61,006 nucleotides of DNA from assembly GCA_947449025.1 (NCBI GenBank), contig CANFQF010000002.1:1-61006 (forward strand), written 5' to 3'. This DNA comes from Comamonadaceae bacterium (GTDB lineage: Bacteria; Pseudomonadota; Gammaproteobacteria; Burkholderiales; Burkholderiaceae_C). Position 1 is the stretch's first letter; each line of letters starts with the position of its first letter. Below, piece by piece: positions 595 through 21,874 of the stretch. A program made the translations under genes and the position numbers. Below the pieces are notes generated by a model, which saw only the letters and a list, made by a program, of their open reading frames with translations, was not told the origin of the DNA and did no database searches.

Positions 595-611
595 GTTTCA
601 CTGGTCGAAAC
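595..611. promoter_or_regulatory. Operator copy 1 of the locus palindrome
   Basis: GTTTCACTGGTCGAAAC is an inverted repeat of GTTTC/GAAAC around a 7-base centre. It is one of six copies of RTTYCRNTGSNYGRAAY in the window. It sits upstream of the cupin gene, with 27 bases between it and the predicted -10. An extra half-site-like CGAAAC follows at 616-621. It is probably bound by the IclR-family regulator encoded at 12206-12976; that assignment is inference. Confidence 0.65.
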
Positions 612-666
612 TCCTCGAAACTTCTGCTTGGTGTCCGGTTCGCGGCGGTCGTGGTGGGGGGCAGGA

Positions 667-1881
667 TCAGGCGCCGCCTTTTGCCGGAATTCCCATCCAA
701 TAGAGCATCTCGCCAGGGGGGGTCTCCACCGCCTGGCGACGCGCGAAGGCAAGGCGTCCGTCCGCGCCGATGCGAAAGATCGTCAACGCCGCAGGCACCG
801 GCACGGCCTGCCCGCCTTCGAGCAGCGCGTGGGGCTTGATGCTGGCGGTGACCAAGAGCTGGCCCGAGGGGTCGCAGGCGAAGGTCCGCACATGGATCGA
901 CTGCGTGTCCGCATGCTGGATCCATGTGGGCTCGCCGGTCTCGGTATCGATCTGATAGACGGCGATGTTGTTCTCGCCGCCGCCAAAAACGCGCGCGCCG
1001 TTCACTTCCACCGTCTGGTCGGCCCGGTTAGCCACATAGACGAATCGACCCGACGGATGCATGTGGATCGGCCCGGCGATCTGCCGGGGCCGCACATGGC
1101 CCGGGTCAGCCAGCGTGTCCAGGGTCCAGGCCGGCTCTGCCTCGAGCCGGTCCTGGGCATCAAAGCGGAACATGTAGAGCCTGTTCAGGCGCTCGTCGGA
1201 CAGGTACATCCAGCGCCGGGTCGGATGAAAGACCGCATGGCGTGGCCCGAAGCCGTAGCCCCCCTGGGGCGCCACCACCTGTCCGGCGCTCAAAACGCCA
1301 TCGCGGACGCCAAAGGTGCGCAAGGCGCCTGGGTCTTCGGGCTTGGACTCGGTGGCCTTGTTGCCCCGATCCACCACCAGCACCGTCCGGCCCGATGGAA
1401 AAACCCGCACCTGGTGCGGGTAGGTGCCGAATTCCAGCCCGGGGTCTTGTGCGATCTCATCGCCCACGCGTCCATCGGCCTCGAGTCCATGGAGGGTCAG
1501 CCGGCCATGCCCGAGGTTGTGGGCATTGACCAGAAAGTGGCCTCCTGGATCGGCGCACATGTGCACCGCCCGCAGGGGCAGCGTGCGGGGCTCGCCATGC
1601 GGCTGGAGGCTGCCGTCTGCAGCGACGGTCCAGGCGCAGACATGGTCGGTGGTGGAAGGCACGCGCGGTCCGCCGTCGCTGCTGCTGGTGTAGAACACGG
1701 GCAGGGTCGGGTGCGGCCAGGCGTACTGCAGCTTGGCCGGCAGTCGCACCTGGGCGCGCTCGGTCAGGGCGGTGCTCACCAGGTCCAGGTCGTGGTGCGT
1801 CAGCACCGAATCGACGGCGCTGTAGAGGGCCATCGTGGGGCCCGACGCCCCGTTCAGGCCACGGCCCCCGGTGCTGCTCAC
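667..1881 (-). CDS. Lactonase-family seven-bladed beta-propeller protein
   Basis: About 404 residues, matching the length and style of the 6-phosphogluconolactonase/3-carboxymuconate cyclase-like propeller family (Pfam Lactonase). Repeating blade motifs are visible: PHQVRVFPSGRTVLVVDRG, GPRHAVFHPTRRWMYLSDE, GPIHMHPSGRFVYVANR and HVRTFACDPSGQLLVTAS. The chosen GTG start at 1881 overlaps the stop of the upstream OB-fold gene by 4 bases (GTGA) and has an AAGGA site 8 bases before it. An in-frame ATG at 1833 gives the start MALYSAVDSVLTHHDLD, which looks like the usual family N-terminus, so the start is open. It is the last gene of the thiolase/OB-fold/lactonase unit. Ring-opening or lactone hydrolysis is a plausible role, but the substrate is unknown. 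Confidence 0.8.
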   Translation of the reverse strand: MSSTGGRGLNGASGPTMALYSAVDSVLTHHDLDLVSTALTERAQVRLPAKLQYAWPHPTLPVFYTSSSDGGPRVPSTTDHVCAWTVAADGSLQPHGEPRTLPLRAVHMCADPGGHFLVNAHNLGHGRLTLHGLEADGRVGDEIAQDPGLEFGTYPHQVRVFPSGRTVLVVDRGNKATESKPEDPGALRTFGVRDGVLSAGQVVAPQGGYGFGPRHAVFHPTRRWMYLSDERLNRLYMFRFDAQDRLEAEPAWTLDTLADPGHVRPRQIAGPIHMHPSGRFVYVANRADQTVEVNGARVFGGGENNIAVYQIDTETGEPTWIQHADTQSIHVRTFACDPSGQLLVTASIKPHALLEGGQAVPVPAALTIFRIGADGRLAFARRQAVETPPGEMLYWMGIPAKGGA

Positions 1882-2297
1882 GGCGCGGATCCTTCGGTGA
1901 CCGGCGTGAACATGGGCACCGTCGTTCCCCCCTCGGTGGTCTGGAAGGTGACCTGCACCCTCTGGCCGATGCGTACCCCGTCCAGGTCGGTGTCCACGAT
2001 GTTGGTCATGAGCACTGGCCCCTCGTCGAGCGTGACATAGGCGATGCAATAGGGCGCCCCGGCGCCCCGGCGGGTCACGCTGTAGGTGTAGACGGTGCCA
2101 GTGCCGCGCGTGTCCATCCATTCCACATCGCTGCTCCAGCAAAACGGACAGAGTGCGCGCGGGTAGTGGTGGATCTCGCCGCAGGCCTTGCAGCGCTTGA
2201 CCAGCAAGCGGCCCTGGGCTGCCGCGTCGAAGTAGGGCGCGTCGCCCGGGTTGAGCGCGGTGTCGAAGAGTTTGCGTTCGGCGGTGAAAGTGGGCAT
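1878..2297 (-). CDS. Zn-ribbon/OB-fold (DUF35-type) thiolase partner protein
   Basis: 139 residues. The N-terminal zinc ribbon shows CKACGEIHHYPRALCPFC (two CxxC pairs, residues about 35-52). An OB-fold-like half follows, with GTVYTYSVTRRGAGAPYCIAY. This is the DUF35/OB-fold family, whose members form complexes with thiolases or thiolase-like enzymes, for example in archaeal acetyl-CoA condensation and bacterial steroid side-chain retro-aldol cleavage. The gene starts 3 bases after the thiolase stop and overlaps the lactonase start, so translational coupling along this unit is likely. It probably binds acyl-CoA for the neighbouring thiolase. Confidence 0.88.
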   Translation of the reverse strand: MPTFTAERKLFDTALNPGDAPYFDAAAQGRLLVKRCKACGEIHHYPRALCPFCWSSDVEWMDTRGTGTVYTYSVTRRGAGAPYCIAYVTLDEGPVLMTNIVDTDLDGVRIGQRVQVTFQTTEGGTTVPMFTPVTEGSAP

Positions 2298-3502: not shown

Positions 3503-3519
3503 GTTCCGATGGACGAAAC
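3503..3519. promoter_or_regulatory. Operator copy 2 of the locus palindrome
   Basis: GTTCCGATGGACGAAAC lies in the divergent gap between the thiolase unit and the FadB-like unit; the flanking G and C extend the symmetry to 19 bases. On the rightward side a TAGCAT box follows after 25 bases. On the leftward side the operator is only 32 bases from the thiolase GTG. That side cannot keep the same spacing, so any effect on the thiolase promoter would need different geometry, perhaps repression. Confidence 0.65.
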
Positions 3520-3521: not shown

Positions 3522-3550
3522 ATATTGAACAACAGAACTCATGATAGCAT
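3522..3550 (+). promoter_or_regulatory. Predicted promoter of the FadB-like operon
   Basis: The -10-like TAGCAT is at 3545-3550, 25 bases after operator copy 2, and the -35 window (3522-3527, ATATTG) is poor. The same TAGCAT hexamer at the same 25-base distance occurs upstream of the Bug gene at 16915. The start of transcription would be near 3557, giving a leader of about 60 bases. Confidence 0.4.
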
Positions 3551-3618: not shown

Positions 3619-5739
<2,121 letters not shown>

Positions 5740-5779
5740 GCATGACAAGACCGGCGGCACCGAACCCGAAGGAGGCGCG

Positions 5780-5992
5780 ATGAGCGACAGCGACAAGGCG
5801 GCACCGTCCGCAGGGGACCAGGCGGCGTTCAAGGCCTGGATGTGCGTGCTCTGCGGCTTCATCTACGATGAGGCCGAGGGAATGCCGGACCATGGCATCG
5901 CACCGGGAACCCGCTGGGCCGATGTGCCCGCGGACTGGATATGCCCCGACTGCTCCTGCGGCAAATCTGATTTTGAAATGGTGGAGGTTTAA
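5780..5992 (+). CDS. Rubredoxin
   Basis: 70 residues with the two iron-binding knuckles CVLCG (about residue 22) and [11 protein letters not shown] (about residue 56) around the typical [14 protein letters not shown] stretch. GGAGG precedes the ATG by 5 bases. It begins 40 bases after the FadB-like stop and ends 2 bases before a Bug gene, so it is firmly inside the operon. Rubredoxins carry single electrons to hydroxylases, desaturases or peroxide-removing proteins. No such oxygenase is visible in the window, so the partner is unknown. The N-terminal 18-residue tail is longer than in minimal rubredoxins. Confidence 0.92.
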
Positions 5993-5994
5993 CC

Positions 5995-6978
5995 ATGAGC
6001 CAGAACTTCGGACGACGTGAATTCATTGTTTCCGCGGCGGCCTGCGCCGCCCCATCAGTCTGGGCGCAGGCGGGCGCGGCCAGCTATCCGGCGCAGCCGG
6101 TGCGCATGATCGTTCCCTTCCCGCCGGGCGGTGGCTCCGACACCCAGGCCCGTCTGATTGGCGAGCGTCTGGCGGCGGTATGGAAGCAGCCGGTCAACAT
6201 CGAGAACATCTCGGGCGCAGGCGGCGGGGTGGCTGCCAGTGCAGCGGCCCGGGCCAAGCCGGACGGCTACACCATCTTCTTCGCCACCCACCCGATCCTG
6301 GCCATCAGCCAGTTCATGACCAAGAAGCTGCCCTATGACCCGGAGCGGGACTTCATCCCGCTGATCAAATTGGCAGACTTCCCTCTCGTGCTGCTGGTGC
6401 CGGAGAACAGCCCCTATCGCACCTTGGCCGACCTGATTGCGGCGGCCAAGGCCAAGCCCGGCACGCTCAATTTCGGCTCGGGCGGCATCGGTACCACCCA
6501 GCACCTTGCGGGCGAGCTGCTCGAGGACCGCGCTGGCCTCGACCTCACCCATGTGCCTTTCCGTGGCAATGCGCAGACCACCACCGCGGTGATTGCCAAC
6601 GAGATCCAGATGTACTTCGACAGCGTTCCCCAGGCGCGCTCGCTGGTCAAAGGCGGGCGTGTGCGGGGCTTGGCTGTGACCGCAGCCAAGCGCCTGGCCA
6701 GCTGGCCCGAGCTGCCCACGGTGGCCGAATCGTTGCCCGGCTTCGAGGTGAGCTTGGCCTATGGCCTGCTCGCACCGGCGGGTACGCCCGCGCCGCTGGT
6801 GGCGGCGATCAACGATGCTGCCAACCGCGCGCTGCGTGACGCGGGCTACGCCGGACGCCTGGCCAGCGAGGGCGCCGCAGTCGAAGGCGGGCGGCCGCAG
6901 GACTTCGCCGACTTCCTGAGTCGCGAACGTAGCAAGTGGGGCCCTCTCATCAAGCGGCTGGACATCCAGGCCGATTGA
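5995..6978 (+). CDS. Bug-family (TctC-like) periplasmic solute-binding protein
   Basis: 327 residues. An N-terminal export signal with twin arginine (FGRREFIVSAAACAAPSVWAQA) is followed by the family hallmarks YPAQPVRMIVPFPPGGGSD and AAARAKPDGYTIFF, then FGSGGIGTTQHLAGEL. Bug proteins bind carboxylates or related small solutes in the periplasm for tripartite tricarboxylate transporters or for sensing. The start follows GGAGGT and is 2 bases after the rubredoxin stop. No TctA or TctB membrane gene is present in the window, so its transporter, if any, is encoded elsewhere. Confidence 0.93.
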   Translation: MSQNFGRREFIVSAAACAAPSVWAQAGAASYPAQPVRMIVPFPPGGGSDTQARLIGERLAAVWKQPVNIENISGAGGGVAASAAARAKPDGYTIFFATHPILAISQFMTKKLPYDPERDFIPLIKLADFPLVLLVPENSPYRTLADLIAAAKAKPGTLNFGSGGIGTTQHLAGELLEDRAGLDLTHVPFRGNAQTTTAVIANEIQMYFDSVPQARSLVKGGRVRGLAVTAAKRLASWPELPTVAESLPGFEVSLAYGLLAPAGTPAPLVAAINDAANRALRDAGYAGRLASEGAAVEGGRPQDFADFLSRERSKWGPLIKRLDIQAD

Positions 6979-7046
6979 GTAGCGAGTTCCCGTCGGCGCA
7001 GCCTCGCGAGGGTGCCTGGCAATTGAATTTTTGACCGGAGCACACC

Positions 7047-8048
7047 GTGATTGCGTCCTCGATCATCAAGAAGATTCTGGCCCTGTGCCTCTGCACGGCG
7101 AGCCTCGCCTTGGGCGGTCTGGCGCAGGCTCAGTCTCAACCATTTCCCAACCGGCCCATCAAGGTCATTTTGGGTTACGCCCCCGGCGGCAGCACCGATG
7201 CCTTCGGCCGCTACTACGTGCAAAAGCTCTCCGAGGTGCTCAACACCCCGGTGGTGATCGACTTCAAGCCCGGCGCTGGCCAGATCCTGGCGGTCAAAAC
7301 CGTGCAGGCGGCACCGGCCGACGGCTACACCTTGTGGCTGGGGGCGGGCAGCGCCTTCTCCCAGGGCCCCGGCATCCGCAATGACCTGCCCTATGACCCG
7401 CTCAAGGACATGGTCCTGATCGGCATGGCTGCGACGTCGCCCGGCGTGATCGTGGTCAGCGCTAATTTGCCGGTGAACAACATTCGTGAGCTGACCGCCT
7501 ATTCAAAGGCCAACCCGGGCAAGCTCAATTACGGCTCCTCCGGCGTGGGCTCGGCCAGCCATCTGCAGAGTGCCTACCTGGTCACGCTGACCGAAATGAA
7601 TATTGAGCACATCCCCTTCAAGGCGGATGCGGAAATCATCAACGGCATGTCCACTGGCTCGGTCCACATGGGCATGGCGACAGTGCAGGCGGGGCTGGCG
7701 GCAGTTGCCTCCGGCAGGGCCAAGGCCATCGCCGTGACCGGATCACGGCGCCTGGCGAGCCTGCCCAACGTGCCGAGCCTGAGCGAAGGCGGTCAGAAAG
7801 AACTCGACGGTGTCGATCCCTATACCTATTACGGTTTGGCGGCTCCGGTGGGCACACCGCCCGCAGTGATCGCCCGACTGAGCGAGGCCTTGCAGAAGGT
7901 CAACGCCAACCCGGAGGTCATCGCTCATGTGCGGGAGAAGCTCTACGCCGAACCCGCCAAGGGCGACGCGGAGTCTTTCCGCCAGTTCATCGTCAAGGAC
8001 ACCGCCAAGTGGAAGGCTTTCGCCAAGCATGTGAAGCTCGGCGAGTAA
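7047..8048 (+). CDS. Bug-family (TctC-like) periplasmic solute-binding protein
   Basis: 333 residues from a GTG start with CGGAG 8 bases upstream. A lysine-containing signal peptide (IIKKILALCLCTASLALGG, cleavage likely after AQAQ) precedes FPNRPIKVILGYAPGGSTDAF and the GYTLWLG and NYGSSGVGSASHLQSA motifs. It is the last gene of the FadB-like operon and the second Bug gene in a row. The two share family motifs but differ clearly in sequence, so they probably bind different ligands. It converges on the enoyl-CoA hydratase gene at 8110. Confidence 0.93.
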   Translation: MIASSIIKKILALCLCTASLALGGLAQAQSQPFPNRPIKVILGYAPGGSTDAFGRYYVQKLSEVLNTPVVIDFKPGAGQILAVKTVQAAPADGYTLWLGAGSAFSQGPGIRNDLPYDPLKDMVLIGMAATSPGVIVVSANLPVNNIRELTAYSKANPGKLNYGSSGVGSASHLQSAYLVTLTEMNIEHIPFKADAEIINGMSTGSVHMGMATVQAGLAAVASGRAKAIAVTGSRRLASLPNVPSLSEGGQKELDGVDPYTYYGLAAPVGTPPAVIARLSEALQKVNANPEVIAHVREKLYAEPAKGDAESFRQFIVKDTAKWKAFAKHVKLGE

Positions 8049-8109: not shown

Positions 8110-8904
8110 TCAACGCCCCTTGAACACCGGCTTGCGCTTTTCCTTGAAGGCCTTGAGGGCCTCCTTGTAGTCCTCGGTGGACTGCACCACTGCCATATGA
8201 GCCGAGACGGCCTCCAGGCTGGTGAGTAGGTCGGTGCGCTGGGCCTGGTAGGTCAGCTTCTTGATGTCACGCAAGTGCACCGGCGGGCCGTCTGCAATGC
8301 GCTGGGCCAGTTCGAGTGCGCGCGTCATGAGCTCGGCGTCGGGGTAGACATAGTTCACCATGCCCAAGCGCAGGGCCTCGTCGGCATGGACGAAATCGCC
8401 GGTCCACAAAAGCTCGAGCGCCTTGGCCAAGCCCACAACCCGGGGCAAGAAGTAGCAGCCGCCATTGCCCGGAAGCAGGCCGACCCGGATGTAGCCCTCG
8501 GAGAAACGCGCGGAGGCGCCGGCGACCCGCAAGTCGCACATGAGGGCCATGTCCATGCCCGCGCCCACCGCCGCGCCGTTGACCGCGGCGATCAGCGGCT
8601 TCTCAAAGAGCTCCACCGCCCGCGCCACCCGTTGGGAGACCTTGGCCAGGCGCTGCTTGCGCTCGAGCGGAGTCGGGTCTCGGACTTCCTGCTCCTTGGA
8701 TCGACGACCGATGTCGCCGCCCGAGCAGAAGGCATCGCCTGCGCCGGTGATGACAAAGCAGCCCACGCCCGGATCTTCGTCGGCCTCGCGCAGCGCGGCG
8801 CTCAGAAGATCGAGCATCTCCTCGCTCTGTGCGTTCTTCTTTTCGGGCCGGTTCAGTCTTGCGAGACGGACCCGACCGATGGTTTCCAGTTCAAGATCGG
8901 CCAT
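8110..8904 (-). CDS. Enoyl-CoA hydratase/isomerase family protein
   Basis: 264 residues of crotonase fold. The oxyanion hole segments are ITGAGDAFCSGGDIG and VNGAAVGAGMDMALMCD, where the first catalytic glutamate is replaced by aspartate. The second region reads FSEGYIRVGLLPGNGG, as in a branch with FSE..VRVGL rather than PEI..G. The chemistry could therefore be hydration, isomerisation or C-C bond cleavage. It ends the leftward unit after the acyl-CoA synthetase and second hydratase, 84 bases downstream of the latter. A GAGGAGAAAA ribosome site lies just before the ATG. Confidence 0.88.
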   Translation of the reverse strand: MADLELETIGRVRLARLNRPEKKNAQSEEMLDLLSAALREADEDPGVGCFVITGAGDAFCSGGDIGRRSKEQEVRDPTPLERKQRLAKVSQRVARAVELFEKPLIAAVNGAAVGAGMDMALMCDLRVAGASARFSEGYIRVGLLPGNGGCYFLPRVVGLAKALELLWTGDFVHADEALRLGMVNYVYPDAELMTRALELAQRIADGPPVHLRDIKKLTYQAQRTDLLTSLEAVSAHMAVVQSTEDYKEALKAFKEKRKPVFKGR

Positions 8905-8950
8905 CGTTTTCTCCTCTTTGCTCTGTGTTGTGCGGGTAGTGATCGCCTTG

Positions 8951-8976
8951 TTGCGCGCTATTGCGCGCTATTGCGC
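8951..8976. repeat. 10-bp tandem repeat between two hydratase genes
   Basis: TTGCGCGCTA occurs twice in tandem and is followed by a third partial copy, TTGCGC. It lies in the 84-bp gap between the two crotonase genes. No function is visible; it resembles other short tandem duplications found in gaps of this window. Confidence 0.75.
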
Positions 8977-8988
8977 CCTCAGGCTTTA

Positions 8989-12012: not shown

Positions 12013-12029
12013 ATTTCGATGGGTGGAAT
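12013..12029. promoter_or_regulatory. Operator copy 3 of the locus palindrome
   Basis: ATTTCGATGGGTGGAAT fits RTTYCRNTGSNYGRAAY at every position, and the outer G and C extend it to 19 bases. It is separated from the predicted -10 by 36 bases, about one helical turn more than the 25-27 seen at four other promoters, which keeps the same face of the helix. Confidence 0.6.
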
Positions 12030-13033: not shown

Positions 13034-14455
13034 TCAGGCGGGAACAAGCTGGCGCGCCAGCTCATTGGCCGCGCGCAGCGCGAACACGGTGGACCGCGTG
13101 AGGCCGCCCACATAGGCCACTTGCCCGTCGCCCTTGCCGCCCTCGATGCCGCCGGCGGCGCAGCCGGCCGAGTACAGGCCTGGGATCGGCTGGTCCTGCG
13201 CATCGAGCACATGGCCGTCGGCGTTGATGACGAGGCCGCCCATGGTGTAGGTGATGCCTGCACACAGCTTGACCGCGTGGTAGGGGCCGCCCTGGATTTG
13301 CATGGCCTTGTAGTTGCCGGTGCTGCGGTGGGGCGTGAGTGCAGCCTCCTGCCCTGAAGCGACCGCGGCATTGAATGTCTGGACGGTTTCCGCCAGGGCG
13401 TCGGCAGGCACGCCAATTTGTGCTGCCAGGCTGGGCAGGTCAGGTGCCGACAACAGGGTGCCGCCGTTGGAGGTGAGGGTGGGGTTGGCCGGGATCAGGT
13501 ACTCGCGGCCGGGGCCGTTCCAGATCGCCGCGTCGAAGATGACGGTGGCGCCCAGGGGGTCGGCCTGCCGCGCGATGCGGTTGGCCATGGTCACGCCGCC
13601 CAGACCCTCGTCCATGAAACGGCGGCCCGAGCCATCAACGACCACGCCCGCTGCGCAGACGAAGTCGATCATCGGGAAGGGCCACAGGTCCGGATTGGTC
13701 ATCGCGTCTTGCGACATCACATGGCCGTAAAAGCGGTCCATGCCCACCACTTGCGCGCCCACGGCGCGGGCCATGCGGATGCCGTCGCCGGTACCAGTGC
13801 CGGCGTTTCGCTGCAGCATCCGCTCGGGGGCGGGGCTGATGAACTCTCGTATGAGGGCCGGGTCGGAATGAAAGCCGCCGTCGCAGACCACCACCGCCCG
13901 CGCGCTGATGTCGACCGGGCCGCTGGCTTGCTCGGCCAGCAGGCCGACGCAGGCGCCACCCTCCATCACCAACTGGCGCGCACGCGTGCCACGCACGATG
14001 CCGCCGCCGGCCTTGATGAGGGCCGCCTCCAGGGTGCGAAGCAGCACGTCACCGCCGCGGCCTTCCCAATAGCGGCGGCCGTGGGTGGCAATCGGCGGTG
14101 CCAGGGTGTGCCGGCGATAGGTTTCGTGGCCGACCTTGATGAAGCGCACCCCCTTCTCACGCAGCCACTGCGTTGCCCCGCCGATGTCATTGACCAGCGC
14201 ATCGACCAGGTCCTCGCGCGCGGCGCCCTTGGTGCGAGTGACTACCGCGTTGCGAATGATCTCCGGGTCTTCTGCCACGTCGCGGTGGGCCACGTGAAAG
14301 GCGCCGCCGGCCACGCGGGTGTTGCAGGGATAGCGGTCCTCGGCGCCTTTTTCCAGCACCAGGGAGCGCACCCCCTGATCGGCCAGGCGCAGGGCGGTCA
14401 CCAGACCGGAAATGCCTGCGCCGATGATGGCGACGTCGGTCTCTAGCCGTTGCAT
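13034..14455 (-). CDS. FAD-dependent oxidoreductase of the fumarate reductase/tricarballylate dehydrogenase type
   Basis: 473 residues. The FAD-binding Rossmann motif is DVAIIGAGISGLVTALRLA at the N-terminus, and GGFHSDPALIREF lies mid-protein. The C-terminal flavin loop TYTMGGLVINADGHVLD is followed by IPGLYSAGCAAGGIEGG. This arrangement is shared by fumarate reductase flavoproteins, 3-ketosteroid dehydrogenases and the tricarballylate dehydrogenase TcuA, which is of similar length. These enzymes put in or remove C=C bonds next to carbonyl or carboxyl groups. It has AGAGGAAG before the ATG and stands between the MmgE/PrpD gene and the IclR gene. No acyl-CoA dehydrogenase is seen in the locus, so this protein may supply the desaturation step. 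Confidence 0.88.
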   Translation of the reverse strand: MQRLETDVAIIGAGISGLVTALRLADQGVRSLVLEKGAEDRYPCNTRVAGGAFHVAHRDVAEDPEIIRNAVVTRTKGAAREDLVDALVNDIGGATQWLREKGVRFIKVGHETYRRHTLAPPIATHGRRYWEGRGGDVLLRTLEAALIKAGGGIVRGTRARQLVMEGGACVGLLAEQASGPVDISARAVVVCDGGFHSDPALIREFISPAPERMLQRNAGTGTGDGIRMARAVGAQVVGMDRFYGHVMSQDAMTNPDLWPFPMIDFVCAAGVVVDGSGRRFMDEGLGGVTMANRIARQADPLGATVIFDAAIWNGPGREYLIPANPTLTSNGGTLLSAPDLPSLAAQIGVPADALAETVQTFNAAVASGQEAALTPHRSTGNYKAMQIQGGPYHAVKLCAGITYTMGGLVINADGHVLDAQDQPIPGLYSAGCAAGGIEGGKGDGQVAYVGGLTRSTVFALRAANELARQLVPA

Positions 14456-14487
14456 GTCAACTTCCTCTTGGATGGTTAGGGGTGAAA

Positions 14488-15903
14488 TCAGTGTGCCTCG
14501 GCTGCGGCCAGGGCGGTCAGCGCCTGCGGCGCCAGGTCGGAGGGCAGGGCGTGCAGCGTCTTCAGCAGGGCGCGCGCGCGGGCCTCACCCAGCACGCCCG
14601 TCGTGAGCTCCAGAAACTTGGCGTCGTGGGCCGCTTCGTCCATGGGGTTGTCTGGCGTGCCCAGTGAGTTTTCGACGAAGGTGGTCTCTTGCCTACCGTC
14701 TTTGAAGCTTACCGTGGCCTCGGTCACGAACTTGCCGGGGTACTGCTTGTCGTACTCGGTCGCTTCGACCAGCTGCACCTTGCGCGCGGTGGCCAGCACC
14801 AGGTCCATGTCCAGCGTGCCCTCGAGATAGCGCAGGTGGGCGCCATAGCCGTTGCCGTAGCCAAGCAGCGCGAACGCCGCCTGCGCCGGGAGGCTAAATT
14901 GCACCTGTTCGATATTGCCCGGGGTGTAGGTGTTGGTGTTGACCAGTCCGACCATGGTGTTGCTCAGACGCGGAATGCGCAGCGAGACCGATTCGATTTC
15001 GGCCAGGCGCCCCGCATACGCACTGAGGATGTCGATGGCGGCATGGTTGGCCCCGCAGCAGCAATAGCGCTTGAAGCCGCCGCGCCGGATCTCGTAGGCG
15101 CTGTCAAAGCCGAAGCGCGACGCGGCATCGGCGGCGGGCTCGCGCTGCAAGAAGGCCTTGTAGAAGCCCTTGACCCCACTCAAAAATGCGCGCGGTCCGG
15201 TAATGCCGGCGCGGGCCAGGTCCGCCGCCATCATCCCGCCGCGCACGCCGATGCCTGGATGCACCCGCTTGACCGAGCCGCCGGTGGACGCGTACTCGGC
15301 TGCGCCCGACGCATGACTCAAGGCGATGGCCAGCGCGTGCAGGGTGGTTTCGGCGTCGAACTTGCGAAGCTTGGCGCAGACCGCAGCGGCGCCAAAGCTC
15401 GCCAGCGCGCTGGCCGGATGAAAGCCGCGCTGCATCAGGTCGGGCGCTGCCAGCACGCCGATGCGCGCGTACACCTCGTACCCCATGAGGATCGCGGTGA
15501 TCACCTCGTCGAGCGAGGCGCCCACCTCCTCGCCGACGGCAAACGCCGTAGCCACCGCGCAGCTGCCGGGGTGGCTGTTACTCGGGCGGTGGCCCTCGTC
15601 GTATTCGAAGCCATGGGCGTAGGTGGCGTTGATGAAGGCGGCGTCCGACGCGCTCACCTGCTGCAGGCTGCTGATGATCCGGCTGCGCCCCTGAAGGTGC
15701 TGCGCGTCGACCAGCGCACGGACCTGTCGCGACCAGGGCAGGCGGGTATTGCCTACCTGAGAGCTGAACTGGTCGCGCAGCACGCGGCTGACCATCACGC
15801 GCAGTTCCGGCGTGACATGTTCGATGCCAAACCCCAGGATGAAGCGGACGACGGCGGTTTCCAGAGGCGGGCAATCGGCCGGCCCGGTCAGTGGTGTAGA
15901 CAT
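14488..15903 (-). CDS. MmgE/PrpD family protein
   Basis: 471 residues. The family core is visible in NATYAHGFEYDEGHRPSNSHPG, ALAIALSHASGAAEY, VKRVHPGIGVRGGMMAADLARAGITGP and FKRYCCCGANHAAID. Members include 2-methylcitrate dehydratase PrpD and cis-aconitate decarboxylase, so a dehydratase or decarboxylase acting on a polycarboxylate or hydroxy acid is likely. It starts 7 bases after the Bug gene stop and ends 32 bases before the flavoprotein. The pairing of a Bug receptor, PrpD protein and FRD-type flavoprotein recalls tricarballylate or citrate-like acid use. Confidence 0.88.
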   Translation of the reverse strand: MSTPLTGPADCPPLETAVVRFILGFGIEHVTPELRVMVSRVLRDQFSSQVGNTRLPWSRQVRALVDAQHLQGRSRIISSLQQVSASDAAFINATYAHGFEYDEGHRPSNSHPGSCAVATAFAVGEEVGASLDEVITAILMGYEVYARIGVLAAPDLMQRGFHPASALASFGAAAVCAKLRKFDAETTLHALAIALSHASGAAEYASTGGSVKRVHPGIGVRGGMMAADLARAGITGPRAFLSGVKGFYKAFLQREPAADAASRFGFDSAYEIRRGGFKRYCCCGANHAAIDILSAYAGRLAEIESVSLRIPRLSNTMVGLVNTNTYTPGNIEQVQFSLPAQAAFALLGYGNGYGAHLRYLEGTLDMDLVLATARKVQLVEATEYDKQYPGKFVTEATVSFKDGRQETTFVENSLGTPDNPMDEAAHDAKFLELTTGVLGEARARALLKTLHALPSDLAPQALTALAAAEAH

Positions 15904-15910
15904 GGGTGGA

Positions 15911-16915
15911 TTACTCCGGCTTGATATTGGCCGCCCGGATCACGTCGCCCCAGTACTTGAAGTCCTTGGCAACGAAGGCCGTCATTTCAGTGTGGCTCAT
16001 GTACATCGGGTCGGCGCCGTTGGCGACAAAGCGTTCGCGCACCTCGGCCGACTTCATGATCTTGTCGACTTCGGCGCTGAGGCGATCGACCACATCCTTA
16101 GGCATACCGGCCGGACCGATCAGGCCGTACCAGCCCGAGCCGGTGGACAGCTCCTTCACGCCAGCCTCGGCAATCGTCGGCACCTCGGGCAGCAGGGCCG
16201 AGCGCTTGGAGCCGGTCACCGCGACCGCCAGCAGCTTGCCGGTCTTGATATGCGGCATGGCGGCCAGCACTGTGGGCAAAGACATGTCCACATGGCCTGC
16301 CAGGATGTCGGTCAAGGCGGGGCCGGAGCCCTTGTAGGGGACGTACTCAAACTTGGTGTTGGCCACGCGCTGCAGCAGTTCGCTGGCCAGGTGGCCGGGC
16401 GCCGCATTGCCTGTCGTAGCGAGGGTCAGTGGCTTTTTGGCCGTGGCCCGTGTGCGTGACAGGGCCAGCAGCTCCATGAGGTTCTTCGCTGGCAGTGCGG
16501 GGTTGATCACGACGACGTTGGGCACGCTGGCCAGCATCGCGATCGAAGTGAAGTCTTTGACCGGGTCGCGCTGCGCCTCTTTGTACAGGTAAGGGTTGGT
16601 GGTCATCCCCATGGACGTCAGCAGCAGGTTGTAGCCATTGGGAGGCACGGCAGCGATCGCGTTGGCCGCGACCATGCCGTTGGCGCCGCCGCGGTTTTCC
16701 ACCACCACCGACTGCCCCAGCGCCTCCGAGAGCTTTTGCCCGAGGAGGCGGGCGATGAAGTCGGTGGATCCGCCGGGCGGAAAGCCCGCCACCAGGGTGA
16801 TGGCGCGCGCCGAAGGATAGGCGCCCTGGGCCAGGGCCAGCGGCCCGGCCCCTGCGCCCCACAAGGCCAAGGGCAGCGCCAGCGCTTGGCGGCGGCTCAG
16901 AGAGAGGGTTTTCAT
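15911..16915 (-). CDS. Bug-family (TctC-like) periplasmic solute-binding protein
   Basis: 334 residues from the ATG at 16915 with CGGAGA upstream; the longer frame to 17041 would cross the promoter and operator. The signal peptide MKTLSLSRRQALALPLALWG has a twin arginine. The mature part opens YPSARAITLVAGFPPGGSTDF and continues with AAVPPNGYNLLLTS and LATTGNAAPGHLASEL. It is the first gene of the Bug-PrpD-flavoprotein-IclR unit, which suggests that its ligand is a substrate of those enzymes. Confidence 0.92.
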   Translation of the reverse strand: MKTLSLSRRQALALPLALWGAGAGPLALAQGAYPSARAITLVAGFPPGGSTDFIARLLGQKLSEALGQSVVVENRGGANGMVAANAIAAVPPNGYNLLLTSMGMTTNPYLYKEAQRDPVKDFTSIAMLASVPNVVVINPALPAKNLMELLALSRTRATAKKPLTLATTGNAAPGHLASELLQRVANTKFEYVPYKGSGPALTDILAGHVDMSLPTVLAAMPHIKTGKLLAVAVTGSKRSALLPEVPTIAEAGVKELSTGSGWYGLIGPAGMPKDVVDRLSAEVDKIMKSAEVRERFVANGADPMYMSHTEMTAFVAKDFKYWGDVIRAANIKPE

Positions 16916-17034: not shown

Positions 17035-17051
17035 GTTCCATTGGTCGGAAT
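17035..17051. promoter_or_regulatory. Operator copy 4 of the locus palindrome
   Basis: GTTCCATTGGTCGGAAT lies in the 246-bp divergent gap. It is positioned for the leftward Bug unit, with its centre about 46 bases before the predicted start of transcription. Copy 5 lies 49 bases away, serving the rightward unit. Confidence 0.65.
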
Positions 17052-17083: not shown

Positions 17084-17100
17084 GTTCCGAGCAATGAAAC
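17084..17100. promoter_or_regulatory. Operator copy 5 of the locus palindrome
   Basis: GTTCCGAGCAATGAAAC on the plus strand is GTTTCATTGCTCGGAAC on the other strand. It matches the consensus in the opposite orientation to copy 4. It is 26 bases upstream of the rightward -10 box. Two facing operators each aligned to their own promoter argue for specific activation of both units. Confidence 0.65.
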
Positions 17101-17103
17101 GGA

Positions 17104-17132: not shown

Positions 17133-17161
17133 TTCCCTCGATTTGAACGAAGGAGAACGCC

Positions 17162-17398
17162 ATGGAAGATGGATCCCAGCCCAGCTACCGCACCCTGCAC
17201 ATGCTGGTCAAACATGGCGACAGGGGCGTCCTTGTCCTGACCGTGGGCGTGCTCCTTCTGGGACTGCTGGCGGTGGTCATGACAGGCGCCCTGTGGGCAG
17301 CGCCCCTGGTTCTGGTCGGCACCGGCCTGCTCTATGTAGTGGCACGCAGCTACGTGGAGCTGGTGCGGGTCATCGTGGACATGCTGCTGCCCAAATAA
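17162..17398 (+). CDS. Small two-helix membrane protein of unknown function
   Basis: 78 residues after a strong GAAGGAGA ribosome site. Two hydrophobic helices are clear: VLVLTVGVLLLGLLAVVMTGA and a second of about the same length centred on APLVLVGTGLLYVVA. They are followed by a short amphipathic tail (YVELVRVIVDMLLPK). I do not recognise the family. It is the first gene of the CapA/SDR unit, 43 bases before CapA, and shares the operator-bearing divergent gap with the Bug unit. The place and size would suit a transporter accessory subunit, but nothing in the sequence proves this. Confidence 0.72.
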   Translation: MEDGSQPSYRTLHMLVKHGDRGVLVLTVGVLLLGLLAVVMTGALWAAPLVLVGTGLLYVVARSYVELVRVIVDMLLPK

Positions 17399-17441
17399 GC
17401 CTCCCCAATCCAGCACCGACAGCGCACAACGGAGAGATTCC

Positions 17442-18566
17442 ATGGCTACCTCTGCATCCTTGCTGATTGGCGGCGACTGCGGTCCCGCCCACGGTCCCAA
17501 GCACGGCTTCCCGATCGAGGGATACACCCAAGGTGTGCTCGGCGCACTCCAGTCGGTGGACATGCGCTTCGTCAACTGCATGCGTACCTACTCGGACCGC
17601 AAGGTCGAGAGCGCGCTTGCCCCGCAGGTGGGCCAGCCGGTCGAGATGGCCCAGATCTATACCGATGGCGGTTTCGACGCCGTCACCATGGCCAATAACC
17701 ACAGCTTTGACGCCGGTGTCGAGGCGATGCTGGACACCCGCGAGCTGTTCGCCTCCAGGGGCATACAGGTCACTGGCGCTGGCCGCGACCTGGCCGAGGC
17801 GCGCAAGGCGGCCATCGTCGAGAAAAACGGTGTGCGGGTGGCCTACCTCGGCTGGACCGCCGTGGCGACGGCCGGTACCGAAGCGGGCCCGGGCAAGCCC
17901 GGTGTGGCCTCGATCCGGGTGAAGACCGCCTACGAGACGCGCGGTCCGCACCAGCCGGTGCGGGTGCGCACCGAGCCGGACCCGAAAGACCTGGCCCTGC
18001 TGCTCGAGGACATCCGCGCCCTGCGCCAGGAGGCCGACGTCGTCATCCTGGCCTTCCACGCCGGCATCATCCGCATCCCGCGCGTGATCTGCGACTACCA
18101 GGTCACCGTGGCGCATCAGGCCATCGAGGCGGGCGCCGATATGGTGGTCGGCCACGCGCCGCACCTGCCCAAGGCCATCGAGATGTACCGCAGCAAGCCA
18201 ATCTTCTACAGCCTGGGCGTGTTCGCGATGACCAAGGGCTTCCCGGCGCCTTCCTGGAACGAGCCGGCCTGGGCCCATGGCGCGGTGCGCAATCACATTG
18301 ACCTGGACCCGGAGTTCCCGCTCATGCCCTATGGCAAGGCCTGCACCCTGAGCATGCTGGCCAAGGCGGTCGTCACCAAGGAGGGCATCGCGCGGGTGTC
18401 CTTCCTGCCCGTGGCCATGGACGCCTACTACCGGCCGCAGGCTCTCAAACAGGGCGATCCCAAATTCGACGAGGTGCTCGCTTACCTCGAGTGGGCCTCG
18501 GCCGATATGCCGCACCAGTTCACAGTCGAGGGTGACGAGGTCGTCGTCACCGCGCCGGCTGCCTGA
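17442..18566 (+). CDS. CapA-family (metallophosphatase-like) protein
   Basis: 374 residues, no signal peptide, GGAGAG before the ATG. The CapA/PGA synthesis fold is shown by LLIGGDCGP at the N-terminus, FDAVTMANNHSFDAGVEAM near residue 85, and AHQAIEAGADMVVGHAPHLPKAIEMYRSKPIFYSLG near residue 240. Several usual metal-site positions differ: the NLE motif reads NCM, HWG reads HAG, and GHHPH reads GHAPH. The asparagine-histidine pair ANNH is kept. CapA proteins are usually linked to poly-glutamate capsule synthesis, but no capsule gene is near. Here it sits between a membrane peptide and an SDR under the locus operator, so a catabolic hydrolase role is more likely. Confidence 0.85.
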   Translation: MATSASLLIGGDCGPAHGPKHGFPIEGYTQGVLGALQSVDMRFVNCMRTYSDRKVESALAPQVGQPVEMAQIYTDGGFDAVTMANNHSFDAGVEAMLDTRELFASRGIQVTGAGRDLAEARKAAIVEKNGVRVAYLGWTAVATAGTEAGPGKPGVASIRVKTAYETRGPHQPVRVRTEPDPKDLALLLEDIRALRQEADVVILAFHAGIIRIPRVICDYQVTVAHQAIEAGADMVVGHAPHLPKAIEMYRSKPIFYSLGVFAMTKGFPAPSWNEPAWAHGAVRNHIDLDPEFPLMPYGKACTLSMLAKAVVTKEGIARVSFLPVAMDAYYRPQALKQGDPKFDEVLAYLEWASADMPHQFTVEGDEVVVTAPAA

Positions 18567-18586
18567 CCCCTTTTTGGAGCATCGCC

Positions 18587-19363
18587 ATGGACCTGGGCAT
18601 CAAGGACAAGGTGGCGCTGGTCACCGCATCGAGTGGCGGCATGGGCCGCAACATCGCCCATGCCCTGGCCGCCGAGGGCGCGCATGTGGTGCTTTTTGCG
18701 CGCAGTGCCGACAAGCTTGAGGCCGCTGCCGCTGAGATTGCCGCCACGTACGGTGTGCGGGCCCTGGCGGTGGTGGGCGACATGCTGGTGCCCGCCGACG
18801 TCCTGCGACTGGCGCAGACCATCCAGTCCGAATTCGGGGGGCTCGACATCCTCGTCCTCAACACCGGTCGCGCACCCAATCCGCTGCGTGCCACGCTGCA
18901 GGAAACCGAAGAGGCGCGCTGGCAGGAGGCCTATCGCAACCAGCTCTGGAGCGTGATCCAGATCGCTAACGAGATGCTGCCGCTCATGACCGGTCGCGGC
19001 TGGGGGCGCATCGTCGCCATCACCTCGGCGTCGGTCAAGCAGCCCATGCCGCACCATAGCCTATCCACCGTGTTTCGCGCCGGCGTGACCGCCTATGTGC
19101 GCCACCTGGCCAACGAGGTCGGCGTGCATGGCATCACTGCCAACTGTGTGGCACCAGCGCTGATCGACACCTCCCATCGCGTGGGCGCTGCCGCCTACAC
19201 CCCCGAGCAGATGCAGGCGCGCAAGAAGATGACGCCGCTGGGCCGCATGGGCCAGCAGGCGGAGGTGTGCGGCGTGGTCGCTTTCCTTGCTTCCTCGCAG
19301 GCCGGGTTTGTCACCGGATCGACCGTGGCGGTCGAAGGTGGCATGGTCGGCTCGCTGTTCTGA
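18587..19363 (+). CDS. SDR-family oxidoreductase with atypical active site
   Basis: 258 residues. The NAD(P)-binding motif is VTASSGGMGRNIAHALA, and LNTGR replaces the usual NNAG. In the active-site helix the YxxxK motif reads STVFR: tyrosine is serine and lysine is arginine. C-terminal GSTVAVEGGMVGSLF matches SDR ends. Such Arg-containing forms are known as a branch of SDRs, but they cannot use the standard Ser-Tyr-Lys chemistry. It lies 20 bases after CapA and is the last gene of that unit. Confidence 0.87.
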   Translation: MDLGIKDKVALVTASSGGMGRNIAHALAAEGAHVVLFARSADKLEAAAAEIAATYGVRALAVVGDMLVPADVLRLAQTIQSEFGGLDILVLNTGRAPNPLRATLQETEEARWQEAYRNQLWSVIQIANEMLPLMTGRGWGRIVAITSASVKQPMPHHSLSTVFRAGVTAYVRHLANEVGVHGITANCVAPALIDTSHRVGAAAYTPEQMQARKKMTPLGRMGQQAEVCGVVAFLASSQAGFVTGSTVAVEGGMVGSLF

Positions 19364-19440: not shown

Positions 19441-20226
19441 CTACATGCGGTCGCTGCGGCCGCCGTCGACGCAGAGCGTCTGGCCGGTGACAAAACTCGA
19501 TTCGTCCGAGGCGAAAAACAGCGCCGCGTTGGCGAGTTCTTCCAGCTTGCCTGGCCGCTTCAAAACTGCCATCTCCGAGCGCACCCGGACATGTTCCTCC
19601 ACCTCCTCGGGGGTTCGGGTGGTTGCTGTGAGCGGGGTGAGGAAAAAGCCGGGCGCCAGGCAGTTGACATTGACACCGCTGGGGCCGAGCTCACGCGCGA
19701 GGATTTTCGTCAGCTGGATCACCGCCGACTTGGCCGAGGCGTAGGGCGCAGCCGCCCCGGCTGAGAGCGTCCCGATGTGGGGCGTCGTCCCCGTGCCCAG
19801 GCTCGACGAGATGTTGATGATCTTGCCGTACTGCTGCCGGGTCATATGCGGCGCGACTGCCTGAGCGCAATAGAACACTGCCTTGAGGTCCAGGCGCAGG
19901 ACCGCATCCCAGTCCGGATCGCTGATCGCGTCGAAGGCCTTGTACTTCGTGACGCCCGCGTTGTTCACCAGAATGTCAATCCGTCCTTCGCTGGCAATCA
20001 GCGCGTCGAAGAATTGCTGCAAGCGCAAGGCGTCCGTCACGTCGACCTGGTGACCGCGCGCGCGGCCACCTTGCGCCTCGATCTCCATCACGGTGCGCGC
20101 GGTCGTTTCCGGATTGATGTCCGCCACGACGGCGATCGCACCTTCCTGGGCGAATCGCGTCGCAATGGCCTTGCCCAGGCCAGAGGCCCCACCAGTGACC
20201 ACGGCCACCTTGTCTTTCAAGCGCAT
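19441..20226 (-). CDS. Classical SDR-family dehydrogenase
   Basis: 261 residues from the ATG at 20226, chosen for its AAGGAGA site; an in-frame start at 20280 is less likely. Complete SDR signature: VTGGASGLGKAIA, NNAGVTKY, NISSS and YASAK, ending GQTLCVDGGRSDRM. It should oxidise a hydroxyl or reduce a ketone with NAD(P). It follows the MFS gene on the same strand with a 90-base gap and converges on the atypical SDR at 18587. Unlike the three other SDRs of the locus it has an intact catalytic triad. Confidence 0.9.
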   Translation of the reverse strand: MRLKDKVAVVTGGASGLGKAIATRFAQEGAIAVVADINPETTARTVMEIEAQGGRARGHQVDVTDALRLQQFFDALIASEGRIDILVNNAGVTKYKAFDAISDPDWDAVLRLDLKAVFYCAQAVAPHMTRQQYGKIINISSSLGTGTTPHIGTLSAGAAAPYASAKSAVIQLTKILARELGPSGVNVNCLAPGFFLTPLTATTRTPEEVEEHVRVRSEMAVLKRPGKLEELANAALFFASDESSFVTGQTLCVDGGRSDRM

Positions 20227-20316
20227 CGGTCTTCTCCTTGGCGAATATCGATAACAGGTCAGATCATGGCGTGAGCGCATCCCGCCATGCGCCTTTTGCC
20301 CACGCTTGCGGGCCCC

Positions 20317-21522
20317 TCAGACAGGGGGCGAACCAGACGGCGGCGCAGGTGGGGGTGCAGTTGGTGGAACCCCCTCGGCGTGCTTTTGCTCACGCAGCAA
20401 AGCGAGGACAGCCCGGATGCCCAGCCCGCCTCCCATAAAAACCAGCAAACCCGCGGCATGGAACACGCCCGAGGCGGTCAGCGCGATGCCGGCTGCGCCG
20501 TAGACCATGGGCATGGCGATGCCCGAGCCGTTGAACAGGATCATGCGCAGCGCCATGCCATCGACCTGGCGGTCCTCGGGTGCCACCTTGTGGATCAGGA
20601 TCATGACCAGCGGCTGCACAGCCCCCAGCAGCGCGCCGAGCGCGAACGAGCACGGCATCATCGAAGACAGGCCCTGCAAGAAGGGATAGACCGCCAGCAG
20701 CACACCGGCCAGCGTGACAGCGCCGGCCAGCGCCAGCCAATCTGGCATCCGGGCGGCGATGGCGGGAACCGCCAGGCGGCTCAGGGTGGCTGCCAGCGCA
20801 AAGGCCCCCATCAACAGGCCGATTGACGAGGCGCTCAAGCCGCGCTCGTGGGCGATGACCGGGACCATGAAGCCGTGCAGATCCCAGGACGCGCCCATGA
20901 GCCAATTGAGCACCATCAATTGCCGAAAGTTCGGAATTCGCAGCAGCGACCAAGGCGAGGTGGGGGCCTGTGGGGGTGCGGGTGCCACCGGAATTTCCCG
21001 CGCCAGGCGGGCTGCCAGCAGGCTACCCAGAGGCAGCAGTGCCAGGGCCATGAAGGCCGACTGGAAGCCAGCGGCGTCAATCAACGCTCCGGCCAGCAAG
21101 GGGCCGATGAAGATCGCCACGGTCGGCGCGATGGAGACCCAGGACAGCCCGCGGCGCAACTCGGCTTCGGAGGAGGAGGCCCGGCCCACATGGCGCTGGA
21201 TGGTGATCAGCGACAGGCCGATCGCACCGCCGCAACACAGAGCGCCCAGGCCCAGGGCGGGAAGCGCCGGCCAGGCCGCCGCCAGGCCGATGCCCGAGGC
21301 GGCGCTGATGCCGCACAGGGTCAGACAAAACTTGAGGCCGCGTTCAGTCACCAGACGCCTGCCAAGCATCGCAATGGCAATTTGCGCGGCCGCAAACAGC
21401 GCCATCAGCACCCCGATGGACGCCGTCCCGTAGCCTAGGCTCAGTGCCAGCAGGGGCGTCGACATCCGCATGCCGGAGAACGCCGAATGCAATCCGACAT
21501 GGCCCAGGATCAGCCGGATCAT
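20317..21522 (-). CDS. MFS transporter
   Basis: About 401 residues, twelve hydrophobic segments, with the loop-2/3 region LGRRLVTERGLKF resembling the MFS motif between helices 2 and 3. The ATG at 21522 (MIRLILGHVGLHSAFSG) is preferred. The frame is open to 21630, but that would run through operator copy 6 and a -10-like TATCAT at 21600-21595. The C-terminus is proline-rich. The class exports or imports small molecules; within this locus it may move the substrate or a product. It starts the unit that ends with the classical SDR. Confidence 0.85.
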   Translation of the reverse strand: MIRLILGHVGLHSAFSGMRMSTPLLALSLGYGTASIGVLMALFAAAQIAIAMLGRRLVTERGLKFCLTLCGISAASGIGLAAAWPALPALGLGALCCGGAIGLSLITIQRHVGRASSSEAELRRGLSWVSIAPTVAIFIGPLLAGALIDAAGFQSAFMALALLPLGSLLAARLAREIPVAPAPPQAPTSPWSLLRIPNFRQLMVLNWLMGASWDLHGFMVPVIAHERGLSASSIGLLMGAFALAATLSRLAVPAIAARMPDWLALAGAVTLAGVLLAVYPFLQGLSSMMPCSFALGALLGAVQPLVMILIHKVAPEDRQVDGMALRMILFNGSGIAMPMVYGAAGIALTASGVFHAAGLLVFMGGGLGIRAVLALLREQKHAEGVPPTAPPPAPPSGSPPV

Positions 21523-21874
21523 TTCCAGCGAGGGGCGGTTGCCCGACTCGGGGGTGGGGCGCTCCTGGGACGGTTCAGGCGATGGCACCCGCAGATGATA
21601 GCGTGCCCGTGTTTCATTGGGTGAAACCAATTCTGAAAATCATCTTTTCACAGGCCGTCGCTGAAACAGGGTGTTCACGGGCCACGCATCGTTATCCCTG
21701 ATTTATCAGGTGCCGCAGATGATTCACCATCGTGGGGGCGCGGGGTGCGCCGGGTCCGCAGGGTGGACCTTCGCGGTGTGGTCCACTCTGTACCTCCGGC
21801 CCCCGTCCGGACGCTCGTGCCGACGGGTCACGCCCATCGCTGCCTGCGCTCCCCTTCCACTCAAGACGAAATTC
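21523..21874. other. 352-bp divergent control region between MFS and SDR units
   Basis: It holds operator copy 6 (21611-21627) and a reverse -10-like TATCAT at 21600-21595 that would place the operator over the -35 of the MFS promoter. For the rightward SDR unit I could not find a convincing -10 at the 25-27-base distance seen elsewhere. The right half has no recognised feature. Confidence 0.5.
21611..21627. promoter_or_regulatory. Operator copy 6 of the locus palindrome
   Basis: GTTTCATTGGGTGAAAC is the most symmetrical copy: GTTTCA and TGAAAC are perfect inverted repeats around a 5-base centre. It lies between the MFS/SDR unit and the SDR/Bug/hydrolase/SDR unit and is the rightmost copy found. 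Confidence 0.68.

What the first reader, a model, noticed from the sequence alone, without database searches (positions are those of the whole stretch)
595..21627. One 17-bp palindrome at the control regions of all eight transcription units of a 26-kb locus
Six copies of RTTYCRNTGSNYGRAAY are seen at 595-611, 3503-3519, 12013-12029, 17035-17051, 17084-17100 (reverse orientation) and 21611-21627. Each is intergenic. Together they cover the upstream regions of the cupin, thiolase, FadB-like, acyl-CoA synthetase, Bug/PrpD/flavoprotein/IclR, small membrane protein/CapA/SDR, MFS/SDR and SDR/Bug/hydrolase/SDR units. I found no copy in the control regions I read to the right of 26582. Known: IclR regulators bind ~15-bp palindromes. 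Inference: the IclR protein at 12206-12976 binds them and the whole locus is one regulon, including its own gene.
Basis: partly seen in the sequence, partly recalled or inferred. Interest (0 to 1): 0.87.

Follow-up and report, generated by a model that had tools for sequence, protein, structure and literature searches.

The report
One switch controlling a catabolic gene cluster
A soil bacterium carries the same short landing site for one regulator protein at the control regions of a gene cluster that probably breaks down an unknown organic acid, and related bacteria keep the site and its layout, so the cluster is very likely switched as a unit, in a way mostly known from related regulators.

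Summary
The six sites are real and exact; the 3.64-Mb own genome has no other exact copy. The motif is a known IclR-family type (PMC8222616). Each site proves to be the strong half of a longer operator: strong palindrome, 2 bp, then a weaker second site 19 bp away (centre to centre) on the gene side. That composite pattern occurs 7 times in the own genome: the six window sites plus one before a Bug-Ldh-Bug-PrpD operon whose homologs sit inside the IclR locus of Cupriavidus. In 60 genus genomes 26 of 28 composite hits fall in the 5 genomes with a close IclR. Sites are enriched around IclR homologs of 41-91% identity, not clearly around those of 38% or less. New detail: two promoter layouts, never on the same side of one operator, seen at 91 of 155 operators and constant for coaL, cupin and fadB. 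Open: activation or repression, effector, substrate, the thiolase, MFS and SDR3 promoters, and a second IclR paralog found in 6 of 12 other genomes but not in this assembly.

The parts
12206..12976 (-). IclR-family regulator (IclR-A, 256 aa)
   Evidence: HTH_IclR and IclR_C Pfam domains above cut-off; 90% orthologs with the same HTH helix PKSTAFRIVQSLEQAG in G029 and G006 (that this is the recognition helix is my assignment)
595..611 (-). strong operator before cupin (strand = side on which the weak site lies); weak site 576-592; extended -10 TGCTATTAT, hexamer 562-567 (layout A)
   Evidence: conserved in G029 and G006
576..592 (-). weak tandem site of the cupin operator, 19 bp centre to centre
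   Evidence: score 7.7
3503..3519 (+). strong operator between thiolase (-) and fadB (+); weak site 3522-3538; extended -10 TGATAGCAT toward fadB, hexamer 3545-3550 (layout A)
   Evidence: place conserved
3522..3538 (+). weak tandem site, fadB side
   Evidence: score 8.8
12013..12029 (-). strong operator before the CoA ligase; second site 11994-12010; TTGACC (11994-11999) and TAGAGT (11971-11976) 17 bp apart (layout B)
   Evidence: (second site 8.3); place conserved
17035..17051 (-). strong operator before bug3-prpD-FAD-iclR; weak site 17016-17032; TAGCAT 17004-17009 at the layout A distance, without the spaced TG
   Evidence: (weak site 1.1); kept although only the last 29-36 residues of bug3 are found in G006 and G029
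17084..17100 (+). strong operator before small membrane protein-capA-sdr1; weak site 17103-17119; extended -10 TGCTACACT, hexamer 17127-17132 (layout A)
   Evidence: (weak site 5.0); place conserved
21611..21627 (+). strong operator between MFS (-) and SDR3 (+); left half of a second site at 21630-21635 on the SDR3 side; no promoter of either layout recognised
   Evidence: (second site -0.8); place conserved
3..533 (-). cupin-like protein, cut by the contig end
667..3470 (-). thiolase (2301-3470), DUF35/ChsH2-like protein (1878-2297), beta-propeller lactonase (667-1884); starts are my choice
3619..8048 (+). FadB-like protein (3619-5739) and two Bug/TctC-type receptors (5995-6978, 7047-8048)
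   Evidence: the second Bug by similarity to the others
8110..11852 (-). enoyl-CoA hydratase (8110-8904), crotonase-like ORF (8989-9735), ADP-forming acyl-CoA ligase coaL (9732-11852)
   Evidence: 8989-9735 by similarity to the hydratase
13034..16915 (-). FAD protein (13034-14455), MmgE/PrpD (14488-15903), Bug3 (15911-16915), in one row with iclR
   Evidence: short gaps
17162..17398 (+). small membrane protein (78 aa), first gene of the capA unit
   Evidence: ATG/GTG start and protein conserved in G029 and G006; 'membrane' judged by eye
17442..19363 (+). CapA-family protein and SDR1
19441..21579 (-). SDR2 and MFS transporter (start uncertain)
21875..26582 (+). SDR3, Bug4, alpha/beta hydrolase (PF20091), SDR4
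   Evidence: Bug4 by similarity

Best explanation
The sites are operators of the IclR-family protein at 12206-12976 (IclR-A, perhaps together with a paralog), which controls a conserved catabolic regulon of unknown substrate. Supported by sequence: each operator is a strong 17-bp palindrome followed, 19 bp further toward the gene, by a weaker second site. Two promoter layouts exist. In layout A the second site is a near-complete palindrome, no -35 box is seen, and an extended -10 (TGNTANNNT) lies at a nearly fixed place, so that (taking the -10 hexamer as -12 to -7) the two sites would cover about -54 to -38 and -35 to -19. In layout B only the near half of the second site is kept, followed by a TTGAC -35 box and a -10 box 17-18 bp later, so that the strong site is centred near -58. 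Inferred: two dimers bind the pair. Without the effector both sites of layout A are filled and RNA polymerase is kept off; with the effector (perhaps a pathway acid or its CoA ester) the weak site is left, while the dimer on the strong site stays and helps polymerase at both layouts. The switch steps and the sense of control are my inference.
For: Exact sites only in this locus of the genome. Composite pattern 7 times in the own genome at 0 mismatches, 0 in the reversed control (row G000); at the four sites with one neighbouring unit on the promoter side it points to that unit, 4 of 4; the seventh copy stands before a pathway-like operon. Co-occurrence with the IclR in 60 genus genomes, hypergeometric p 3.8e-6. 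Enrichment by identity band. 67 of 134 strong sites have a second site at exactly 19 bp, the next commonest distance 9. Site columns 89 of 102 identical in three genomes, flanks 625 of 928, p 1.4e-5. Layout by gene: coaL 15 B, 0 A; cupin 16 A, 0 B; fadB 16 A, 0 B. 77 composite hits against 3 control hits in 12 other genomes, 59 of 77 within 50 kb of such an IclR by my count from the listings. 6 of these 12 have one such IclR at E <= 1e-40 and still have composite hits. IclR-family motif and tandem spacing are published.
Against: No binding, expression or effector data. With 1 mismatch allowed the composite pattern has 14 hits in the own genome against 8 in the control. The own genome has 20 IclR-family matches, and another IclR has a similar palindrome near it (C8), so cross-binding is possible. 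An IclR of about 30% identity to IclR-B lies beside the seventh site. A second close paralog is in 6 of 12 other genomes. 64 of 155 operators show neither layout on either side; thiolase 0 of 19, iclR 1 of 19, capA only 3 of 19 sides, and those 3 are orthologs. Five of 16 loci in the 41-49% band have no site. Relatives are not independent samples, so the p-values overstate. Plain repression or plain activation fits the layouts too.
Confidence: 0.8

Rival explanations
1. A second IclR paralog (IclR-B, about 59-65% identical), encoded beside cupin in some relatives, is the main binder or shares the sites with IclR-A; in this genome it lies beyond the contig end.
For: G029 has IclR-B next to cupin at C45:123-863; L052, L058, L065 and Caballeronia, Paraburkholderia and Trinickia genomes have two close IclRs. 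HTH helices are nearly the same. The window's contig ends inside cupin.
Against: No IclR-B in the own assembly; 6 of 12 genomes have a single close IclR at E <= 1e-40 and still composite hits. The grouping of the IclR-B copies next to cupin has support 88/92 only.
Confidence: 0.25
2. IclR-A is a plain repressor: the tandem dimers cover -54 to -19 and block polymerase; layout B is an operator further upstream.
For: The weak site of layout A overlaps the -35 to -19 region. Repressors are common in the family: 4 of 20 PDB rows are named repressor or negative regulator.
Against: Strong sites of layout B lie upstream of a -35/-10 pair, a poor place for blocking. The extended -10 sits at one exact distance in 49 of 62 layout A cases, stricter than blocking needs.
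Confidence: 0.35
3. IclR-A is a plain activator of the PcaU/PcaR kind, replacing the missing -35 contact in layout A.
For: No -35 box and near-fixed spacing in layout A; -58 centre in layout B. Best NCBIfam neighbours are pcaR_pcaU and BhcR, far below cut-off. A paper title in a reference list says that PcaR activates and represses by binding the -35 and -10 elements (title only).
Against: The weak site lies where polymerase must sit; neighbours below cut-off say little.
Confidence: 0.3
4. The palindromes are chance or belong to an unrelated regulator.
For: The pattern was derived from the sites themselves; the 17-mer alone occurs in 29 of 60 genus genomes.
Against: tie conserved sites of this build to the IclR.
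Confidence: 0.03

Closest known systems
IclR-family group-1 operators, subgroup GTT-11-AAC (Suvorova and Gelfand 2021, PMC8222616; outline with abstract, section 12 part 1 and passages seen)
   Same: Half-sites GTTYCR...YGRAAC at the same distance; tandem sites 18-22 nt apart in 94 ortholog groups
   Different: Centre is TGG or TGC, not W3; strong-weak pairs tied to two promoter layouts; more units than the 'one or two adjacent operons' that the paper calls general
GenR of Corynebacterium glutamicum (site ATTCC-N7(5)-GGAAT in a table passage of PMC8222616; original paper not read)
   Same: Same spacing and almost the same half-sites; its listed title says it activates and represses
   Different: Other bacterial group and pathway (3-hydroxybenzoate, gentisate)
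PcaU, PobR and HmgR three-box sites (passages of PMC8222616)
   Same: Palindrome plus a further half-site, like layout B
   Different: Here the extra half-site starts 2 bp after the palindrome and is followed by the -35 box; layout A has a whole second palindrome
TtgV (PDB 2xrn, 2xro)
   Same: IclR-family protein; a listed title says it represses two different promoters
   Different: Only distantly similar (E 7.7e-13); controls efflux genes (recalled)

Membership tests
IclR-family regulator | IclR HTH and IclR C-terminal effector domains, about 250 aa | tested here: met
   PF09339 and PF01614 above cut-off, 256 aa
IclR-family regulator | binds DNA as dimer or tetramer | not testable with these tools
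   only operator geometry suggests it
PcaR/PcaU/PobR subfamily (TIGR02431) | score above the curated cut-off | tested here: not met
   117 bits against 284.75
BhcR (NF045644) | score above the curated cut-off | tested here: not met
   117 bits against 350
Group-1 GTT-11-AAC operators | half-sites GTTYCR and YGRAAC at 11-nt distance | tested here: met
   TTYCR and YGRAA with this spacing in 6 of 6; outer G and C both kept in 4 of 6 (consensus)
Group-1 GTT-11-AAC operators | W3 centre | tested here: not met
Tandem IclR sites | second palindrome 18-22 nt away, centre to centre | tested here: met
   19 nt at 67 of 134 strong sites in other loci; in the window the second sites are weak, scores -0.8 to 8.8
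Autoregulation in the IclR family | operator controls the regulator's own gene | tested here: inconclusive
   iclR is last in a row of four close genes behind the 17035 operator; in several relatives a site lies just before iclR, but 18 of 19 iclR-facing sides show neither layout; no expression data

The most novel reading that the evidence does not exclude
One IclR regulator uses a strong site plus a tunable second site to run two built-in promoter types: several enzyme genes on -35-less extended -10 promoters covered by a second dimer, and the CoA-ligase gene and a Bug-type uptake operon on ordinary promoters with only a second half-site. The genes that make and import the signal would thus answer by another rule than those that consume it, and for coaL, cupin and fadB this split is kept across several genera.
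Probability: 0.35. Interest if true: 0.6.

Novelty: new member of a known kind. Interest (0 to 1): 0.42.

Why it matters
It gives a sequence-defined regulon of at least seven operators for a catabolic cluster whose substrate is unknown and whose core is shared by Ramlibacter, Cupriavidus, Caballeronia, Paraburkholderia and relatives; the pattern finds pathway genes elsewhere in a genome, as with the seventh site. The two gene-specific promoter layouts make the question how one IclR protein could both activate and repress testable with a handful of promoter fusions.

Tried and rejected
Chance: rejected. A link between the asymmetric centre (TGG) and gene direction: looked at by eye, but in the orientation set by the weak site the centre is CCA or GCA at four sites and TGG at two, so I dropped it. 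ORF 17113-17466 as the small protein: wrong frame; the conserved frame is 17162-17398. Paper searches: for the cluster's gene types held 0 papers; others (9 of 9 listed; 9 of 9; 10 of 169; 8 of 10; 8 of 11) showed no closer case than PMC8222616 in what was listed; whether its supplement already holds this regulog could not be seen. PDB searches of the cupin-like protein (E 0.01) and the hydrolase (E 0.001): no hit; thiolase and FAD protein hit only broad families. Substrate: not identified.

Counts and dropped rows; some loci overlap on one contig (for example L051 with L076, L060 with L074), so some sites are counted twice, in observed and expected alike; expectations come from 10 first-order Markov sequences per locus. 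One search left out L050, L051, L076, L092 and L095 (same stretches as other loci or as the window's near orthologs) and duplicate sites; a pair of two strong sites counts from both ends. One search kept 82 of 136 operators with a second site of score 5 or more (70 of 82 printed). Searches use different locus sets and rules, hence 62/30 and 70/32 sides for layouts A/B; 2 of the 30 have no -10 match, and the -10 test there is lenient (A and T at two places, four spacings); 123 sides with a gene homolog within 450 nt have neither layout; many are the far side of an operator that fits on its other side; the flanks of the 17035 and 17084 sites overlap. One search used 4 control hits for the 12 genomes; the listing shows 3, and I quote no p-value from it. 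In one search the 2 hits of G003 are one palindrome read in both directions, and 2 of the 8 hits of G006 have the same 25-mer.
Full report
Observation. The own genome (G000, 3.64 Mb, 304 contigs; its nearest named relatives at this locus are Ramlibacter) has these six and no others; the control pattern has 2. In 60 genus genomes the 17-mer alone is less telling: 29 of 60 have at least one, own, G006 and G029 have 6 each, G051 has 5 without a close IclR, G003 4, and G016 none. All six window sites have counterparts at orthologous places in G029 and G006: 89 of 102 site columns are identical in the three genomes against 625 of 928 flanking columns (p 1.4e-5). At two of the six places (before fadB and in G006 at 17084) a counterpart departs from the exact pattern by a letter.

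Genes. Pfam and NCBIfam give a beta-propeller lactonase, a DUF35/ChsH2-like protein and a thiolase, a FadB-like protein, Bug/TctC receptors, enoyl-CoA hydratase, ADP-forming acyl-CoA ligase, IclR, FAD protein, MmgE/PrpD, CapA, four SDRs, MFS and an alpha/beta hydrolase. The cupin has no Pfam hit. By my reading this is a set for activating an acid to its CoA ester and breaking it down; the substrate is unknown.

The motif is of a known kind. Suvorova and Gelfand (PMC8222616: outline with abstract, section 12 part 1, and passages seen) define IclR group-1 sites, subgroup GTTYCRYW3RYGRAAC, and report tandem sites 18-22 nt apart in 94 ortholog groups. Our half-sites fit; the W3 centre does not.

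Link to the IclR. One scan of named genomes with the IclR alignment gave 59 loci. A matrix made only from the six window sites gives, per identity band, observed/expected sites of score 14.5 or more: 79% and over 10/0.4 (3 loci), 60-70% 94/10.5 (24), 50-59% 12/1.0 (7), 41-49% 24/2.2 (16), 38% and under 12/7.3 (9; p 0.07). Five of the 16 loci in the 41-49% band have no site. Around 25 IclR paralogs of 29-36% identity, with 1.5 kb on each side (91 kb in all), there is 1 site.

In the window a second, weaker site lies 19 bp from each strong one on the gene side; averaged over the six, +19 is the best of all offsets tried (z 4.9; 4.4 for the four one-sided cases; for the two divergent sites I chose the side). 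Single scores are modest: 8.8, 8.3, 7.7, 5.0, 1.1 and -0.8. In other loci 67 of 134 strong sites have a second site of score 7 or more at exactly 19 bp; the next commonest distance has 9.

Genome-wide test. The composite RTTYCRNNNNNYGRAAYNNRTNYYR occurs without mismatch 7 times in the own genome: six in the window and one at C25:11447; its reversed control has 0. With 1 mismatch allowed there are 14 against 8. The box part of the pattern came from the six sites, the seventh hit did not. That one stands before Bug-Ldh-Bug-PrpD and is kept before 90% orthologs in G006 and G029; the operon's proteins are 64-74% identical to proteins encoded near IclR-A in two Cupriavidus plasmids, and all but the second Bug also in Candidimonas (L059), Ldh and PrpD in an Alcaligenaceae strain (L061). 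An IclR about 30% identical to IclR-B lies beside it. In 60 genus genomes there are 28 composite hits: own 7, G029 7, G006 8, G016 2, G003 2, and 2 in the other 55; the five are exactly those with an IclR of 44% or more. The reversed control gives 8 hits in the 60.

Twelve other genomes, picked from the loci with close IclRs, hold 77 composite hits against 3 control hits; by my count 59 of 77 lie within 50 kb of such an IclR. The other 18 may be further targets, targets of other IclRs, or chance.

Regulon core. Despite shuffled gene order sites recur beside coaL, thiolase, cupin, capA and fadB in Cupriavidus, Caballeronia, Paraburkholderia, Trinickia and others (51 loci; not every locus shows every gene). 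The Cupriavidus necator NH9 plasmid pENH92 carries a version with one close IclR in the record, TcuAB, rubredoxin and further Bug and PrpD genes.

Two promoter layouts. Aligning 82 oriented operators shows TG and TANNAT downstream of the weak site. Among 155 operators, 62 sides have TGNTANNNT at offsets 38-41 (49 of them at 39), 30 have TTGAC at 28-36, 28 of these with a -10 match 17-18 bp on, and no side has both; 91 of 155 operators show a layout on at least one side and 64 on neither. With more loci and a gene assignment: coaL 15 B, 0 A, 13 neither or weak; cupin 16 A, 0 B, 16 neither or weak; fadB 16 A, 0 B, 6 neither; first gene of the C25-type operon 4 B, 0 A, 2 neither or weak; capA 3 A (window, G029, G006) and 16 neither; thiolase 19 neither; iclR 1 A and 18 neither. 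Many of the 'neither' sides are the far side of an operator that fits on its other side. Related promoters are not independent, but non-orthologous promoters within one genome share a layout too. In the window cupin, fadB and capA are A, coaL B, bug3 A-like; SDR3, MFS and thiolase fit neither.

Which IclR. The tree puts the window protein with L050-L052 (97/95) and the copies next to cupin (L076, L052b, L058b) in another group (88/92); second copies of Caballeronia and of Paraburkholderia form further groups. Six of 12 genomes have one close IclR, six have two. The own assembly has no second one, but the contig ends in cupin.

Mechanism. Shown by sequence: operator and promoter geometry, conservation, co-occurrence. 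Inferred: dimers on both sites, blocking in layout A, help from the strong site in layout B, and an effector from the pathway. The stated confidence 0.8 is for the regulon and the operator build; the two-site switch I put at about 0.35.

Noticed in passing
G000:C25:11447-11471 (L046 6448): Seventh composite operator of the genome, outside the window, before a Bug-Ldh-Bug-PrpD operon; another IclR (about 30% identical to IclR-B) lies at L046 11254-12033.
   Followed up: yes
window 15911-16915 and 19441-20280: In the fetched loci of G029 and G006, SDR2 has no counterpart at its place and only the last 29-36 residues of Bug3 are found, while the operators beside them are kept.
   Followed up: partly
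window 21875-22627 and 25806-26579: Two SDRs of the same unit are close duplicates (206 identical positions, 251 and 258 aa).
   Followed up: no
G000:C8:8434-8450 and G029:C35:4474-4490: An identical palindrome AGTTCATCCAATGGAAC in two genomes; in G000 another IclR gene is near (C8:8625-9239), so it may be the site of that IclR.
   Followed up: no
L037 7723, 7767, 8631 (G003:C211): Three palindromes of the same kind between divergent Bug genes beside a CoA-ligase homolog, with no iclR hit in the locus: perhaps another regulon.
   Followed up: no
window 1-533: The contig ends inside the cupin gene, where G029 has a second IclR paralog next door.
   Followed up: partly
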